Shown piece after piece: positions 44,497 to 49,635 of a stretch of 64,000 nucleotides of DNA. Made by a program: the position numbers and the translations under genes. Numbering within the stretch: position 1 is the stretch's first letter; the number at the start of each line of letters is the position of its first letter. Origin of the DNA: Pseudomonas marvdashtae (lineage in GTDB: Bacteria > Pseudomonadota > Gammaproteobacteria > Pseudomonadales > Pseudomonadaceae); the NCBI RefSeq assembly GCF_014268655.2, contig NZ_JABWQX020000001.1:3316001-3380000 (forward strand), in the 5' to 3' direction. The notes under the pieces were generated by a model that did no database searches, was not told the DNA's origin, and was given only the letters and a program-made list of their open reading frames with translations.

Positions 44497-46332
44497 TCAG
44501 CCACGAACAATCAAGTTATCTAGATCGTAGACGCCACCGCCTTGCATGACGTCGACACGGTGCAAGATGCGCAGCGCCCGATTACCGGGTTGCTCGCTGC
44601 GAGGCGCCGAACCGCTGAGCAGTAACGCCCTGTTGTCCAACGTGAACTGTGCGTTGAGTGTCGGCGTCGCCGCGACAGCTTTCCAGAAAGCATGTTTGAA
44701 CAGGTCGAAACGCTCGAAGACTTGCCCGCGCAATTGATCGGCAACCAACGCCGGGACAGGGGCACCCTGGCTGCTCGCCGCTTGCGTCTGCCAGGCCTCA
44801 GCCACCGCCAGCCCTGCTCCGCTGACGACACCGGGACAATCCCGACGGTCGTTGAACATCACGTAGACCGGCTCCAGCCCGGAATCGTGGGGGAACACCA
44901 CGACGTAATCATCGAATCGCACCTCTTCGACAGAGTCGAACGAGGCCAATTCTGGCACCGATGAAGACCGGACAAAGCCAGCGGAGTCGAGCCGATCCTG
45001 CTTGGGCGTCGCGGCTGATTCCACGCCACGGGGTAGCGCCCATTCGACAACGGAGGACTGCGGGCCATCCGTCGTCAAACGGTAAACCCTCTCGTCTTCA
45101 TGCCAGAGCGCCGGCCTGACACGAACCTTTGCGGGCAACGCCCCGGCGCAGGGAGTGATGTAGATTTCAAAAAGCTCGCGTATTGCTTTCAGCCCATAAG
45201 ACAGGCTGCCGGGTTTCACGGCGACCGTCGTGGTGCCCATTCGCATCGGCAACTCGACTTCGCCACGCTGAGCGGCAAGTGCCTGCCAATCAGGATCGAT
45301 CAGCGAGAGTTCGGCCAACGCCACGCAGAGGCCAAAGCGCACTGCCTTGGCTCGACTGGCGAACCTGAAGTTCAGCACGCCGACGTATTTTCCGAGATGC
45401 TCCCGCGCGCCGTCAGTCATCGACCAATTGAACTCGGCGACTGCGGAACGGAGCGTCTTTTGCAGGTCTGTTCGCTGGCGGGGCACCAGCGGCTGCGCAT
45501 TGCTGATTAACAGACTTGGGCGTTCCAGATTGTCGGCGGCAGACAGACGAAACAAAGTGGCGCCGAGGTCTGTTCCCCGTATATGCACAAGCTGCCCCAA
45601 GGTATTGTCCAGCGCGGTTTCGGCCTTGGAGTGAAGCTCCGCGTGGCGCTGGGCAATCAACGACAAACGCGCAATATAACGGCTGTGGTTGACAGTCGCC
45701 TGCTGCAGATTGGCTTGCCAGGTGGTCCCGTCCGCTTTGTTGTAGGCAAGATTTTGCTTGGCTGCGTTCTTCGCAAATTCAAGGCGCATTTTTTTGCGTC
45801 CGAATGCACCTACGGCCATGAGCACATCGTGCTGTGCGCGCTCGACGTGACGGATGGCTTTTTCCATGTTCGCCAGTGTCGCGCTTGGACTCTGTTGGGT
45901 TTGCAGCGCCTTGATAGAACTCTCAAGCAGCGTGAAGGCCGATTCGGTCGTTCGCTCCGCAGCGGCAAGGTCCGCTGTCACCCGCTGCGTGTTGGCAAGC
46001 TCGCGCTTGGCTCTCGCTGTCGCCTGCTCGGCTGAGCTCAACCTGGGTCCTGGCTTGACCGACGCCGGAAGCGCCCCGCCCTTGAAAGGAATGATGTTGT
46101 TTTTAAGATGCCAGTGTTTTACGTAATAAACGACTGCCCCGGAGGAGTTCCGGTTCGTGGTGTCCTCTGGGTAAAACAGCAGGTCCGCACCGCCGGGATG
46201 CCCCACTATTCGATCAAAGTGATTAATCAGCCTGTCATGATCTTCTTCACGAATATCGACGTTCCAGATCTGGTCGACGAACATCTGAAACTCGGACTCG
46301 GTGTAATCCTGGAGTTTTGCTTTAAGTTCCAT
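44497..46332 (-). CDS. Chimeric colicin-DNase immunity / S-type pyocin-like protein with a dead HNH domain
   Basis: The 611 residues start with a full Im7/Im9-type immunity domain (1-~88: MELKAKLQDYTESEF, HPGGADLLFYPED), keeping D50, F53 and Y54 where Im9 has D51, Y54 and Y55. A helical, coiled-coil-prone region follows (~95-250), then a pyocin S-type translocation region (~330-515) ending in the family linker FDDYVVVFPHDSGLEPVYVMF. The last ~80 residues match the colicin E9 DNase (LRGQVFERFDLFKHAFWKAV) but end at VYDLDNLIVRG: the HH pair reads H591-R592 and the final H-x3-H is missing, so it cannot be an active HNH nuclease. AAGGAAAA precedes the ATG. Confidence 0.85.
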   Translation of the reverse strand: MELKAKLQDYTESEFQMFVDQIWNVDIREEDHDRLINHFDRIVGHPGGADLLFYPEDTTNRNSSGAVVYYVKHWHLKNNIIPFKGGALPASVKPGPRLSSAEQATARAKRELANTQRVTADLAAAERTTESAFTLLESSIKALQTQQSPSATLANMEKAIRHVERAQHDVLMAVGAFGRKKMRLEFAKNAAKQNLAYNKADGTTWQANLQQATVNHSRYIARLSLIAQRHAELHSKAETALDNTLGQLVHIRGTDLGATLFRLSAADNLERPSLLISNAQPLVPRQRTDLQKTLRSAVAEFNWSMTDGAREHLGKYVGVLNFRFASRAKAVRFGLCVALAELSLIDPDWQALAAQRGEVELPMRMGTTTVAVKPGSLSYGLKAIRELFEIYITPCAGALPAKVRVRPALWHEDERVYRLTTDGPQSSVVEWALPRGVESAATPKQDRLDSAGFVRSSSVPELASFDSVEEVRFDDYVVVFPHDSGLEPVYVMFNDRRDCPGVVSGAGLAVAEAWQTQAASSQGAPVPALVADQLRGQVFERFDLFKHAFWKAVAATPTLNAQFTLDNRALLLSGSAPRSEQPGNRALRILHRVDVMQGGGVYDLDNLIVRG

Positions 46333-46415: not shown

Positions 46416-46576
46416 TTATTCTGGCTTGAAGCCTGGTTTGTTATGGCGGGATCGCCATTCCTTGACTTCTTTCAGGGTCCCTACGAGGCCGTCATCTTGG
46501 CCTTTGCTGGGGGACGAGAAATAACGCCATAACCGTCTGGATGCTCAGTGACAGCTTCGAAATAGGGAAGCGCTCA
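46416..46576 (-). pseudogene. Frameshifted 3' half of a colicin-DNase immunity (Im) gene
   Basis: Reading on minus from 46573, one frame gives ALPYFEAVTEHPDGYGVI and a second, from about 46500, gives DDGLVGTLKEVKEWRSRH followed by NKPGFKPE and a TAA. Joined, they match residues ~35-86 of Im9 (HFEEMTEHPSGSDLIYYP, then [21 protein letters not shown] in pattern). The reading frame breaks near 46490-46505, and the N-terminal half is absent, replaced by the end of the neighbouring immunity gene. It has no start codon and is not expected to be translated into a working protein. Confidence 0.8.
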
Positions 46577-46585
46577 TCACCTTGA

Positions 46586-47062
46586 TCAACGGTGTCCTTT
46601 ATCTATTAACGTGAAGACCAAGGTTTTTACTCTCATATCCTGGGTATATTGAAAAACAACCTTTTTATCGGGATACAATTCTGGGTCCAACGGGTACGAA
46701 TCCCACCCCCCAGTCATCCCTATCGGAACTGGCATTTTTATAGGGCCTTTCGATTCCATCGGCTCACCAAAAATGGCATGGACATCAGACTGCGTCATCT
46801 CTGGCATATAGGGGGCAGGAAGCTCGCCTTGATATTTGGAGGTCGAAGGTGTGGTTCGTATGAGGGTAACGAAAAGCGTCTCGAATCTCCTTGTCTCCCG
46901 CCAGAAGTCCAGCTCTATGCCCGGTTCCGGGTCAAGTCCAAGTCGATCTCGCCCCTCATACATTTCGGTCAATGTTTGGTCGGGAAGTACACCCTGCCCT
47001 ACCAATACCTCGTGCGAAGTTCCGATACGTTCGATTAGGACTTCAAATTCAAAAGCTTTCAT
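46586..47062 (-). CDS. Probable immunity protein of the S-type bacteriocin (DUF6392-like)
   Basis: The 158-residue soluble acidic protein (MKAFEFEVLIERIGTSHEV) has the pattern of DUF6392, a family seen next to Pseudomonas S-type bacteriocins: GQGVLPDQTL, LDPEPGIELDFWRET, ELPAPYMPEMTQSDVHAIFGEP. Its ATG overlaps the killer gene's TGA by one base (TGATG), and AGGGGTGG lies seven bases upstream, so it is translationally coupled, as immunity genes usually are. It is AT-richer than the chromosome around it. The family assignment is from memory; the immunity role follows mainly from position. Confidence 0.75.
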   Translation of the reverse strand: MKAFEFEVLIERIGTSHEVLVGQGVLPDQTLTEMYEGRDRLGLDPEPGIELDFWRETRRFETLFVTLIRTTPSTSKYQGELPAPYMPEMTQSDVHAIFGEPMESKGPIKMPVPIGMTGGWDSYPLDPELYPDKKVVFQYTQDMRVKTLVFTLIDKGHR

Positions 47063-49635
47063 CAATACCACCCCTGGTTTTTATGCAGATCGTGCAACAA
47101 CTTTTGGGCCGCATCTATATCTGACTCTGAAGCTCCAGATTCGACAAGTCCCGGTTTTAGTGCTGCTAAATTACTGTTCACTGCTGCCTCCAGATCTGCA
47201 GCGTCATTCATGCTTTTCTCGACGCTGTTGCGCCCACCATACGTCTCACTGAATTTCTGATGAACACTCGAAGGAATAGCAATACACGGCGCCCGTCGGA
47301 TGGCGTCCCGAATTTCGGAGGTGCTCATATTTTCATAATGCATACCCATATGAATTTCCAACGCCTTCCTAGACGGTATGTGATCAATGTCCAACCCATC
47401 CCCTCTGCTTCGACCACTGAGCTCGTTATACGGCCCTACCTCCAACGGTTCCACCGGAGGGCCGACAAACACCAATCCCGGCGAAGGCAGTTCCATATCC
47501 CCCGGATACCCCGGAATACTCGCACCGCCCTGCACCGGATCAATAGCCGGAAACGTCTGGTTTTCCGGTAGGACGGGGATGACAGGGTTGCCGGGGTAAA
47601 CCTGCGACAGCGGTGGCGCACTCGGTAAGGTGGTCGGGCCGAGCAGTTCGATGCCCGGCGGGACCAGGGGTGTTCGGGTGCCGTCGCCGACAGGCGCCGC
47701 CGGCCAAGGTATGACGGCCGGGACGATACCCGGTGTGCCGAGCAGGCTGTTTGGCGTGGTGATGCTGATGCGGTCGAGGTTGAATGGGTTTTCACCCAGC
47801 TCTGCCCGCTCCTGGTAACGCAGTTCGAATTGGCGACGCTCACCCACCCAAGTGCTTTTCGGCGCATAGGGGGCAAAGCCTCGTTCGATGCGTTTCTGAT
47901 TGACCTCGTCTGCGTTGCTGAACAGCGTCGGATGCTCGGCCAGGGTTTGCCATACGGCCTGATCGAAAGCACTGAACGACTTGATTTCCCGCGCCCGTAG
48001 CTGGTGGCCGAGCTGTTCGGGAATGGCCGCGCCCTGGGCCCGGCTTGCGGTGTTCCACCAATCATTCGCTGCCGGTTTGCCAGCGCCCGTGACGATGCCC
48101 GAGCCGAGGGGTGGCAAATCGAAAGAGAAATAGGTGGGTGGCAGGCCAGGCACGCAGACGATGCAGTCTTGAATGCGCAGGTCCACGCCCGCCGGCAAAG
48201 TCACCACCTGAGGCGCCATTGCCGTCAGCACCGGTGGGCTTGCAGGCATCGCCTGGCTGGCGGCATCGGCGGTAAATTGCAGGTGTCGGGTCGGTGAGCC
48301 GGGGACTTCGGCGTTGTAGAGGCCGGTCAGGGGATCAAATACCGCGCTGACGACAGGGACATGAGTTGCGATCATGTTGCCGGTATTGGCAACGTGAAGC
48401 GCAGTGCCTTCGGTCACAGCTTGTGGCTTGAGCCGGTACGCCACTTCAACCGAACCGCCGGCATCAGCAATCGATCGCAGCGCGGGGCTGTCGGTGACGC
48501 CGAGCGCTTGCGCCGGTACGCCGACGCCCTGGAACAAGCGGCTACGTTGTTCGGGCGTCAGCTCGCCGTTGCCCAGCTCCGGCGAGTAGACCATCGCGGT
48601 GACGAAGACCGGGCCCGTCCTGGCCAGGATCCGTCCGTAGTCCTTGAGCGTTTCGACGGACGCGGCGACAGCCTGTTCCAACACCGCTGCAGCTTGCTGG
48701 CCGACAAACACGGCGTCCCGCGTCAATACCATCCCGCCCGCAGTCATCGAAAGCGCAGGCACACTCAGGGTATGGACTTGCCTGAACCGCTCCAGTCGAA
48801 TGCTTTCATCCACTTGCTGTTTAAAGCGGATGCGCTCCGCTCGCTGCTCGGCATACTGGCGTTGGCGCTCCCAGACAACCTCTCGCTCCCGCCAAACCAC
48901 GGTCTGTTCGGCATGGTGCCGGGCCAGCGCGTTGGATTTTTCGGTCAGGGCCTTGATCTGCGCAGACAGTATTTGCGCCTCTTGGGCAGCGGTATAAGCC
49001 TGCTCCCAGAGTCGATGACCTTCTTCAGCCGCGGCGCCGAATTGAGCCAGTCGCGTGCGGTAGTCGTTCGCCGAACGGATGAGCGGATCCTGTCCGTCGA
49101 AGACACGGGCCGCGCTGTTCTTGGCGTTGAGTTCCGTGGTTTTTCGGGCGATCAGCCCGTCGATCTCATTTTTCTCTTTGGTGATGGTGTAAAGGTGCCA
49201 GCGCTCGGTCGAGTTCGAAGTGGGCGGCCGTCTTGCCGCAGAGATTTCCTTTTGCAGCGACGCGTCGAGTTGTTGCTTTTTATTCGCGAAGTGTCGATCC
49301 ACCTCGGCCCGGGCGGAGGTGTGGCGCTGCACCATGGTCGCCAGCACTTGTTGGCGCGCTTGGTCCTTGGCCTTCGCGGCAGCGACGGCCTTGGCTTTCG
49401 CAGCGTCGGCTTTCGCTTTTGCAGCGGCTTTCGCTTCTTCGGCCTGGCGTTGGAGCGTCGCTCGCCGCCGCTTTTCCATCCCCTTGGCTGAACGCTTTGG
49501 GCCGCCTGTCGCTCCGACGCGGTTTCCTCCGAAGCCGCCGCCATACCCGCCGCCGGAACCGCCACCCGGTGCGGGCCGCCCCGGTCTGATGACTACTGTT
49601 CCATCTGATCCATCGTTAAGTGTTTGCTTTGCCAT
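47062..49635 (-). CDS. S-type (colicin-like) bacteriocin with a replaced C-terminal toxin domain
   Basis: The 857 residues read: Gly-rich disordered N terminus (~1-45), long Ala/Lys/Glu coiled-coil receptor region (~50-330), pyocin S translocation domain (~380-520, ending PPTYFSFDLPPLGSG), a degenerate HNH DNase-like domain (523-628; FELRYQERAE in place of FELHHEKP, then LDRISITTP), a Pro-rich linker (629-733), and a new C-terminal domain (734-857) with GPYNELSGRSRGDGLDIDHIPSRKAL and PSSVHQKFSETYGGRN. The D751-H752 and H792 pattern suggests an HNH/endonuclease VII-type toxin. GGAGAA precedes ATG 49635. Confidence 0.85.
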   Translation of the reverse strand: MAKQTLNDGSDGTVVIRPGRPAPGGGSGGGYGGGFGGNRVGATGGPKRSAKGMEKRRRATLQRQAEEAKAAAKAKADAAKAKAVAAAKAKDQARQQVLATMVQRHTSARAEVDRHFANKKQQLDASLQKEISAARRPPTSNSTERWHLYTITKEKNEIDGLIARKTTELNAKNSAARVFDGQDPLIRSANDYRTRLAQFGAAAEEGHRLWEQAYTAAQEAQILSAQIKALTEKSNALARHHAEQTVVWREREVVWERQRQYAEQRAERIRFKQQVDESIRLERFRQVHTLSVPALSMTAGGMVLTRDAVFVGQQAAAVLEQAVAASVETLKDYGRILARTGPVFVTAMVYSPELGNGELTPEQRSRLFQGVGVPAQALGVTDSPALRSIADAGGSVEVAYRLKPQAVTEGTALHVANTGNMIATHVPVVSAVFDPLTGLYNAEVPGSPTRHLQFTADAASQAMPASPPVLTAMAPQVVTLPAGVDLRIQDCIVCVPGLPPTYFSFDLPPLGSGIVTGAGKPAANDWWNTASRAQGAAIPEQLGHQLRAREIKSFSAFDQAVWQTLAEHPTLFSNADEVNQKRIERGFAPYAPKSTWVGERRQFELRYQERAELGENPFNLDRISITTPNSLLGTPGIVPAVIPWPAAPVGDGTRTPLVPPGIELLGPTTLPSAPPLSQVYPGNPVIPVLPENQTFPAIDPVQGGASIPGYPGDMELPSPGLVFVGPPVEPLEVGPYNELSGRSRGDGLDIDHIPSRKALEIHMGMHYENMSTSEIRDAIRRAPCIAIPSSVHQKFSETYGGRNSVEKSMNDAADLEAAVNSNLAALKPGLVESGASESDIDAAQKLLHDLHKNQGWY

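What the first reader, a model, noticed from the sequence alone, without database searches (positions are those of the whole stretch)
44497..46332. Immunity domain fused in-frame to a pyocin translocation region and a dead DNase domain
Seen: one 611-residue frame starts with an Im7/Im9-type domain that keeps the DNase-contact residues (D50, F53, Y54), continues into S-type pyocin sequence and ends with a colicin E9-like DNase fold lacking the second catalytic His (H591-R592) and the final H-x3-H. Known: in colicin E/pyocin S loci the killer and Im are separate genes and the killer is active. Inference: this chimera cannot kill by DNase activity; it may be a stand-alone immunity device, a decoy that sequesters DNase bacteriocins, or a recombination relic kept for its Im domain. 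I know of no characterised function for such a fusion.
Basis: partly seen in the sequence, partly recalled or inferred. Interest (0 to 1): 0.85.

Follow-up and report, generated by a model that had tools for sequence, protein, structure and literature searches.

The report
Immunity domain as bacteriocin docking clip
In many Pseudomonas genomes an antidote-like protein is fused to bacteriocin entry machinery and travels with a large bacteriocin that carries a dead copy of the enzyme the antidote once blocked, which suggests that an old poison-antidote pair now serves as a clip that holds a two-protein weapon together.

Summary
In detail: an open 611-codon frame (minus strand, 44497-46332) encodes an Im7/Im9-type domain, a coiled coil, a pyocin inner-membrane translocation domain (IMTD) and a catalytically dead colicin-type DNase tail. 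It is neither a relic nor a one-off: 107 of 112 listed homologues join Im to Pyocin_S, most without the tail, under purifying selection. Of 298 Pseudomonas genomes 31 have the fusion and 28 a full partner core; all 28 have the fusion, and the other three have broken partners. The partner's mid domain has lost its HNH histidines, yet its Im-contact positions are its more conserved ones; the fusion's Im specificity positions are conserved too, whichever toxin is attached. The salt bridge reported in all DNase-Im structures is charge-swapped in 55 of 71 pairs (the window's own copy is one of 2 like-charge exceptions). Best explanation: Im and dead DNase have become a constant docking clip joining two subunits of one bacteriocin. 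Binding is inferred, not measured; what the fusion adds to killing (a second IMTD, perhaps) is open.

The parts
44497..46332 (-). Im-coiled coil-IMTD-dead DNase fusion protein (611 aa)
46075..46332 (-). Im7/Im9-type domain (residues 1-86): inferred clip half A; residues 31-45 are the least variable of the 33 fixed 15-residue bins over residues 1-494
45562..46050 (-). long coiled-coil region (residues 95-257)
   Evidence: AlphaFold2 helices 100-254
44854..45561 (-). inner-membrane translocation (Pyocin_S) domain, residues 258-493
   Evidence: extent compared with the PyoG IMT domain 256-485 in PMC9040868
44500..44850 (-). dead colicin-type DNase tail (residues 495-611); keeps the H103 equivalent, lacks H102, H127, H131; exosite loop shortened by 3 residues
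46425..46511 (-). remnant of a stand-alone Im gene (Im profile positions 54-82), frame-shifted
46586..47071 (-). DUF6392 (PF19929) protein, 161 aa, probable immunity protein of the partner's C-terminal toxin
   Evidence: place in the exchangeable cassette; function inferred
47062..49635 (-). partner S-type pyocin, 857 aa from the likely ATG (the longest frame opens at GTG 49707)
47746..48102 (-). partner's mid-chain dead DNase domain (residues 512-630): inferred clip half B
47854..47880 (-). conserved Im-exosite loop GFAPYAPKS of the mid domain (residues 586-594)
47065..47433 (-). partner's C-terminal toxin cassette (about residues 735-857, DIDHIPS...SETYGGRN type); boundary approximate

Best explanation
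The fusion is the constant second subunit of a two-protein S-type bacteriocin. Its N-terminal Im domain no longer neutralises a nuclease; it binds the catalytically dead DNase domain in the middle of the partner pyocin. Shown by sequence: the two genes co-occur almost without exception, lie in one order on one strand, have parallel histories, keep the two complementary faces, and in most pairs carry swapped charges at the one salt bridge common to DNase-Im structures. Inferred: that they bind in the producer and are released as one complex (partner with receptor region, exchangeable toxin and its own immunity protein, plus the fusion with a coiled coil and an IMTD). Inferred and weakest: that the fusion helps delivery, most likely by bringing a second IMTD for the toxin, which in the common lineage hangs on a long Pro-rich linker and not directly behind an IMTD.
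For: Co-occurrence: of 298 genomes 31 have the fusion over about residues 1-485 or more, 28 a partner core through the mid domain, and all 28 have both; 2 more partner genomes (G245, G155) have a partner that lacks the mid domain and G112 only a fragment, all three with the fusion; Fisher p 3e-36 for 28/3/0/267, relatedness not corrected. Order: the fusion lies downstream of the partner on the same strand, cassette(s) between, in 48 of 48 locus pairs. Cassette-independent: C-termini of 71 pairs are DNase in 35, DIDHIPS/SETYGGRN in 33, unclassed and apparently frame-shifted in 3, with the same Im face. Mid domain: E-[LIVF]-H-H in 0 of 71; exosite motif N-x3-phi-x2-G-x-[ASP]-P in 71 of 71 with Val allowed as phi, 42 of 71 in the strict published form. 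Recalled Im-contact positions of 39 mid domains are less variable than the rest (0.90 vs 1.40 bits), the reverse of 24 active C-terminal DNases (1.97 vs 1.10), reached by 0 of 20000 permutations. Fusion Im specificity positions 1.04 vs 1.53 elsewhere, stand-alone Ims 2.04 vs 1.07, p 0.0006. PMC4548480 (passages) reports Im Glu30 - E2 Arg501 (Arg54 of the domain, my numbering) in all DNase-Im structures: fusion/mid pairs have K/R with D/E in 55 of 71, E with R/K in 2. Fusion Ims one clade 99/92, mid domains one clade 100/98. Distance-matrix correlation in 17 loci: fusion Im-mid 0.66, stand-alone Im-C-terminal DNase 0.73, four cross pairs 0.105-0.27. Purifying selection.
Against: No direct evidence of binding; no co-folded model. 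The window's own copy has E29 opposite D558 (like charges, with R28 beside E29); L027 likewise; 12 of 71 pairs are neutral or gapped there. The two classical E/R-K pairs (L037, L047) are sister lineages in the tree, so the swap may be one event. A column-by-column covariation scan was null (29x54 ranks 1784 of 11684). Three of 51 loci with Im, coil and IMTD hits have no intact partner (L005, L076, L077), so the fusion can outlive the partner for a while. The parallel history of fusion Im and mid domain may reflect linkage in the constant part of the locus rather than contact; with L037 included the cross-pair correlations rise to 0.58-0.67. The partner has an IMTD of its own, so a second one is not obviously needed. 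The helix III hotspot positions alone did not differ (p 0.15). The coiled coil is less constrained (dN/dS up to 1.29 in L012-L013).
Confidence: 0.62

Rival explanations
1. Chassis-directed immunity: the fusion is a producer-side antidote that binds the constant dead DNase of any incoming bacteriocin of this family and so protects whatever toxin is attached.
For: Predicts the same Im:mid-domain contact; toxin cassettes vary while the fusion stays. In three loci the fusion persists beside a broken partner, as an antidote might.
Against: An attacker would gain by varying the exosite, yet it is the more conserved part of the mid domain. Of 268 genomes without the partner core at E 2e-61 only 1 has a long fusion match, G112, whose partner is a fragment, so it is rarely if ever kept as an orphan defence (the search scored at most 4 candidates a genome). 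A coiled coil and an IMTD under selection have no obvious place in a cytosolic antidote. Between partner and fusion the loci still list an Im or DUF6392-type frame of their own (10 of 10 of the latter that were profiled match PF19929, 8 over its cut-off).
Confidence: 0.15
2. Producer-side chaperone or release factor: the fusion binds the dead DNase to fold, stabilise or export the partner and is not part of the delivered weapon.
For: Same co-occurrence and contact evidence; Im proteins stabilise their DNases (general knowledge, recalled).
Against: Does not explain why an IMTD, a domain reported as needed for passage of PyoG across the target's inner membrane (PMC9040868), is kept at low dN/dS.
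Confidence: 0.14
3. First reader's decoy or stand-alone immunity against foreign DNase bacteriocins.
For: The Im fold and hotspot D50/F53/Y54 are kept; the window copy keeps Glu at the Glu30 position.
Against: Specificity positions conserved, not diversified; the Glu30 equivalent, which meets Arg54 of active DNases (Arg in all 24 C-terminal DNases examined), is Lys or Arg in about 80% by weight of 40 fusions; strict tie to one partner.
Confidence: 0.05
4. Relic of recombination kept by chance.
For: The tail is dead and most listed homologues lack it; remnants exist in some loci.
Against: dN/dS 0-0.36 for Im over 25 pairs, also 0.12-0.16 for the tail among WIN, L003 and L050; long matches in 31 of 298 genomes.
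Confidence: 0.02

Closest known systems
DNase colicin/pyocin - Im pairs (E9/Im9, S2/ImS2, AP41/ImAP41)
   Same: Im fold, DNase fold, exosite motif, hotspot D-L-x-[FY]-Y; homologous on both sides
   Different: Here the DNase is dead and in mid-chain, the Im is fused to an IMTD, the salt bridge is mostly charge-swapped, and both faces are conserved rather than diversifying
Nuclease bacteriocins with an inner-membrane translocation domain (PyoG and others, PMC9040868)
   Same: The fusion has the IMTD at the same place relative to an N-terminal region and a C-terminal nuclease fold
   Different: No active toxin, and an Im at the N-terminus. The legend of Fig. 1D in PMC9040868 lists Colicin_Pyocin among domains found in IMT-domain proteins, so the co-occurrence was counted before, with no function given in the parts I read
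CL7/Im7 engineered tag (inactive colicin E7 DNase bound by Im7)
   Same: Works like it: a dead DNase and an Im used as a clip between two proteins
   Different: Man-made; known to me from recall and a search listing with starts of abstracts; not a member of the same system
Inactive domains in polymorphic toxins (inactive transglutaminases, PMC3482391)
   Same: Dead enzyme domains proposed as binding modules inside toxins (passages)
   Different: Other fold, other partner; anchoring to the cell surface is proposed there

Membership tests
Colicin/pyocin immunity proteins (PF01320) | Im four-helix fold over the Pfam cut-off | tested here: met
Colicin/pyocin immunity proteins (PF01320) | helix III hotspot D-L-x-[FY]-Y | tested here: met
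   D50, F53, Y54; in 40 fusions D 100%, F 100%, Y 94% by weight; D in 69 of 71 pairs
Colicin/pyocin immunity proteins (PF01320) | conserved Glu30 of helix II that meets DNase Arg54 | tested here: not met
   K/R in about 80% by weight of fusions; Glu in the window copy, but with Asp at the facing position of the mid domain
Colicin/pyocin immunity proteins (PF01320) | separate small protein encoded next to an active DNase and inhibiting it | tested here: not met
   fused to an IMTD; no HNH DNase at 33 of 71 partner C-termini; inhibition itself not testable
S-type pyocin / nuclease bacteriocin | Pyocin_S (IMTD) domain | tested here: met
S-type pyocin / nuclease bacteriocin | active C-terminal toxin domain | tested here: not met
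   fusion tail lacks H102, H127, H131 equivalents
S-type pyocin / nuclease bacteriocin | receptor binding and TonB/Tol engagement | not testable with these tools
   no receptor known for either protein
Two-subunit bacteriocin (proposed) | obligate co-occurrence of both genes | tested here: met
   28 of 28 full partner cores have the fusion; 28 of 31 fusions have a full partner core, the other 3 a broken partner
Two-subunit bacteriocin (proposed) | physical complex and joint requirement for killing | not testable with these tools
   needs a bench test

The most novel reading that the evidence does not exclude
A toxin-antitoxin interface has been exapted into a permanent assembly joint: a binary S-type bacteriocin in which one subunit (Im + coiled coil + IMTD) is clipped by its immunity domain onto a pseudo-DNase in the other, so that toxin cassettes can be exchanged freely while the joint and the second translocation subunit stay constant.
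Probability: 0.5. Interest if true: 0.85.

Novelty: new variant of a known kind. Interest (0 to 1): 0.72.

Why it matters
Colicin DNase-Im pairs are a textbook model of ultra-tight, specific and fast-diverging protein recognition. A natural family in which the same interface stopped diverging, lost its enzyme and reversed its key salt bridge would be a ready test case for how such interfaces are rewired, and would show a natural counterpart of the CL7/Im7 clip. If the complex is real, S-type bacteriocins would include obligate two-protein weapons with plug-in toxin cassettes, which bears directly on how nuclease bacteriocins cross the inner membrane. Genes now often named 'bacteriocin immunity protein' in databases would need another name.

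Tried and rejected
Column covariation (mutual information with APC, 70 pairs): null, probably dominated by relatedness. The AlphaFold2 model of the partner is poor overall (pLDDT 59); its one clear Foldseek match (1v15_D, E 5e-11, 119 columns, TM 0.83 to the target) is to E9-type DNases, and since the listing gives no model range I assign it to the mid domain by inference. No model coordinates were in the Python box (listing), so contacts between Im and tail in the fusion model could not be measured. Spread outside Pseudomonas: 2 of 390 genomes of the order matched at 1e-40, both same genus, 142 genera sampled. Literature: full-text searches listed no paper that I could see describing this fusion or its partner; I read passages of 7 papers (PMC5536347, PMC9040868 with its section 5 whole, PMC3390384, PMC4548480, PMC3482391, PMC4219678, PMC9598984), not whole texts, and most subscription papers are not held. 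DUF6392: 0 papers.

Full report
What is there. The frame at 44497-46332 lies on the minus strand and runs from ATG to stop without interruption. It has, in order, an Im7/Im9-type domain (residues 1-86), a coiled-coil region (helices 100-254), an inner-membrane translocation domain (IMTD, Pfam Pyocin_S, about 258-493) and a colicin-type DNase fold (495-611). The DNase tail is dead: H591 aligns with H103 of E9, but H102 is Leu, E100 is Arg, and the chain ends before H127 and H131 (E9 numbers are recalled).

It is a family. A search of 5.8 billion proteins gave 112 clusters at E <= 1e-3 (7998 candidates were scored): by precomputed Pfam 17 have Im, Pyocin_S and DNase, 90 have Im and Pyocin_S only, 4 show Im only and 1 lacks Im; the two-domain members that I read end close to the DNase boundary. 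Names given by NCBI are mostly 'bacteriocin immunity protein' or 'S-type pyocin domain-containing protein', nearly all from Pseudomonas. Among 298 Pseudomonas genomes 31 have a match over about residues 1-485 or more, and at least 2 have fragments (G215, G159; the list of weaker matches was cut). In 390 genomes of the order (142 genera) only 2, both of the same genus, matched at 1e-40. Nei-Gojobori dN/dS over 25 pairs with dS below 0.9 (from 52 distinct coding sequences) had medians of 0.17 (Im, range 0-0.36), 0.20 (IMTD) and 0.28 (coiled coil, 23 pairs, up to 1.29 in L012-L013); for the dead tail, the three comparisons among WIN, L003 and L050 gave 0.12-0.16 (two further 'tail' values, 0.58 and 0.73, come from L007, L010 and L055, which show no DNase hit there). 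So the fusion is maintained, dead tail included where it is present.

The partner. Directly upstream on the same strand are a DUF6392 protein (46586-47071) and a large S-type pyocin. Its longest frame starts at GTG 49707, but an ATG at 49635 behind AAGGAG (857 aa) fits the homologues better. Pfam finds Pyocin_S and Col-Pyo_DNase in it, but the DNase domain is in mid-chain (residues 512-630 of the 857), followed by a Pro-rich stretch and a separate C-terminal toxin. A frame-shifted scrap of a stand-alone Im gene lies at 46425-46511, just before the fusion. Using the first 660 residues as query, 30 of the same 298 genomes match at E <= 2e-61, 28 of them through the mid domain; all 30 also have the fusion. 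The two partial ones, G245 and G155 (L076, L077), have partner genes broken with the mid domain missing. The one fusion genome without a match, G112, is the L005 locus, where the partner is a fragment. For full partner core against fusion the table is 28/3/0/267, Fisher p 3e-36, relatedness not corrected; each genome search scored at most 4 candidates. A more distant partner-like gene in G146 (L079, 30% identity) also has a diverged fusion next to it. Of 61 distinct fetched loci scored, 48 have both genes, 3 a fusion with a broken partner (L005, L076, L077), 1 a partner with a damaged fusion (L014), and 9 neither by these thresholds: L041, L042 and L045 look like ordinary DNase pyocin plus Im, L038, L043, L046, L048 and L080 hold remnants, and L079 is the diverged pair just named.

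What varies and what does not. Between partner core and fusion sit exchangeable toxin/immunity cassettes: an HNH DNase with a stand-alone Im, or a DIDHIPS...SETYGGRN toxin with a DUF6392-type protein, sometimes stacked (10 such proteins were profiled and all 10 match PF19929 at E below 0.01, 8 over its cut-off). Among 71 unique fusion/partner pairs the partner's C-terminus is a DNase in 35, the other toxin in 33, and 3 are unclassed, apparently frame-shifted. The fusion lies downstream of partner and cassettes in 48 of 48 locus pairs; what follows the fusion was not surveyed. The Im face of the fusion is the same whatever the cassette, so the Im is not the antidote of the cassette toxin.

The two faces. 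None of 71 mid domains has E-[LIVF]-H-H (that set was chosen by profile score, not by absence of His, whereas the 39 were partly sorted by it). Yet the exosite motif reported for DNase-Im complexes (N-x3-phi-x2-G-x-A-P, PMC4548480 passages) is kept in 71 of 71 if Val is allowed as phi and Ser or Pro for the Ala, in 42 of 71 in the strict form. Over 39 mid domains and 24 active C-terminal DNases, the 15 recalled Im-contact positions have mean entropy 0.90 in mid domains against 1.40 at the other 98 positions; in active DNases 1.97 against 1.10; none of 20000 permutations of position labels reached this contrast. On the other side, 7 recalled specificity positions of Im have 1.04 against 1.53 in 40 fusion Ims but 2.04 against 1.07 in 30 stand-alone Ims (p 0.0006); the 5 hotspot positions alone do not differ (p 0.15). 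Residues 31-45 are the least variable of the fixed 15-residue bins over residues 1-494 of the fusion. Active pairs diversify at this interface; this pair has largely frozen.

The charge swap. PMC4548480 states that Im Glu30 and E2 Arg501 (Arg54 of the domain in my numbering) form a salt bridge in all DNase-Im structures. Position 54 is Arg in all 24 active DNases examined here. In the 71 pairs the fusion has K/R with D/E in the mid domain in 55, E with R/K in 2 (L037, L047), like charges in 2 (WIN and L027), and 12 are neutral or gapped. The window's own copy is therefore an exception: R28-E29 facing D558. L037 and L047 are sisters, so the swap may have happened once. A general covariation scan found nothing at this sample size.

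History. Fusion Ims form one clade against stand-alone Ims (99/92), mid domains one clade (100/98), and tails one group on the side of the active DNases (93/92) (few columns, some long branches). Distance matrices of fusion Im and mid domain correlate at 0.89 over 38 loci; in the 17 loci with all four parts (L037 left out) the values are 0.66 for fusion Im with mid domain and 0.73 for stand-alone Im with C-terminal DNase (the known kind of binding pair), but 0.105-0.27 across; with L037 they are 0.86, 0.83 and 0.58-0.67. This shows two co-inherited blocks; it does not by itself prove contact.

Interpretation. The simplest account of all this is that the fusion Im binds the partner's dead DNase (my probability about 0.85) and that the two proteins form one bacteriocin, the fusion adding a coiled coil and a second IMTD (about 0.6). 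The IMTD is reported to be required for inner-membrane transport of PyoG (PMC9040868, passages and section 5). In the common lineage the toxin is attached by a linker rather than directly behind an IMTD, whereas the basal L037 and L079 partners have a second IMTD before a second DNase (in L037 that DNase is in a separate overlapping frame); a trans-acting IMTD would fit, but this is the weakest step. A chassis-directed immunity is the strongest rival; conservation of the exosite in the attacker's own chain and the near lack of orphan fusions speak against it. The legend of Fig. 1D in PMC9040868 shows that Im/IMTD co-occurrence has been counted before; I found no functional account in the searches named in Tried and rejected.

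Noticed in passing
L037:5164-8321 and L079:761-3601: Basal partner pyocins carry a second IMTD and a second, active-looking DNase after the dead one (in L037 the last DNase is in a separate overlapping frame); this may be the ancestral state from which the linker form arose.
   Followed up: partly
window 46586-47071 and 47065-47433: DUF6392 protein next to a DIDHIPS...SETYGGRN...QGWY toxin tail: a recurrent toxin/immunity cassette of Pseudomonas bacteriocins for which no held paper contains the word DUF6392.
   Followed up: partly
L018, L020, L021, L062, L063 between partner and fusion: Stacked orphan toxin ends and immunity genes, as if displaced cassettes pile up between the two constant genes.
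   Followed up: no
L076 and L077: Partner genes broken with the mid dead-DNase region missing while the fusion frame stays open.
   Followed up: partly
partner residues C491 and C494 (P0114 numbering): An invariant C-x-x-C in 53 aligned partners stands where ordinary pyocins and the fusion have the D-D-Y-[IV]-V-V-F-P stretch; the distant L079 partner lacks it.
   Followed up: no
G000:C2:440321-440722 and G000:C1:3481629-3482021: Two further Pyocin_S frames (431 and 412 aa) elsewhere in the window's genome.
   Followed up: no
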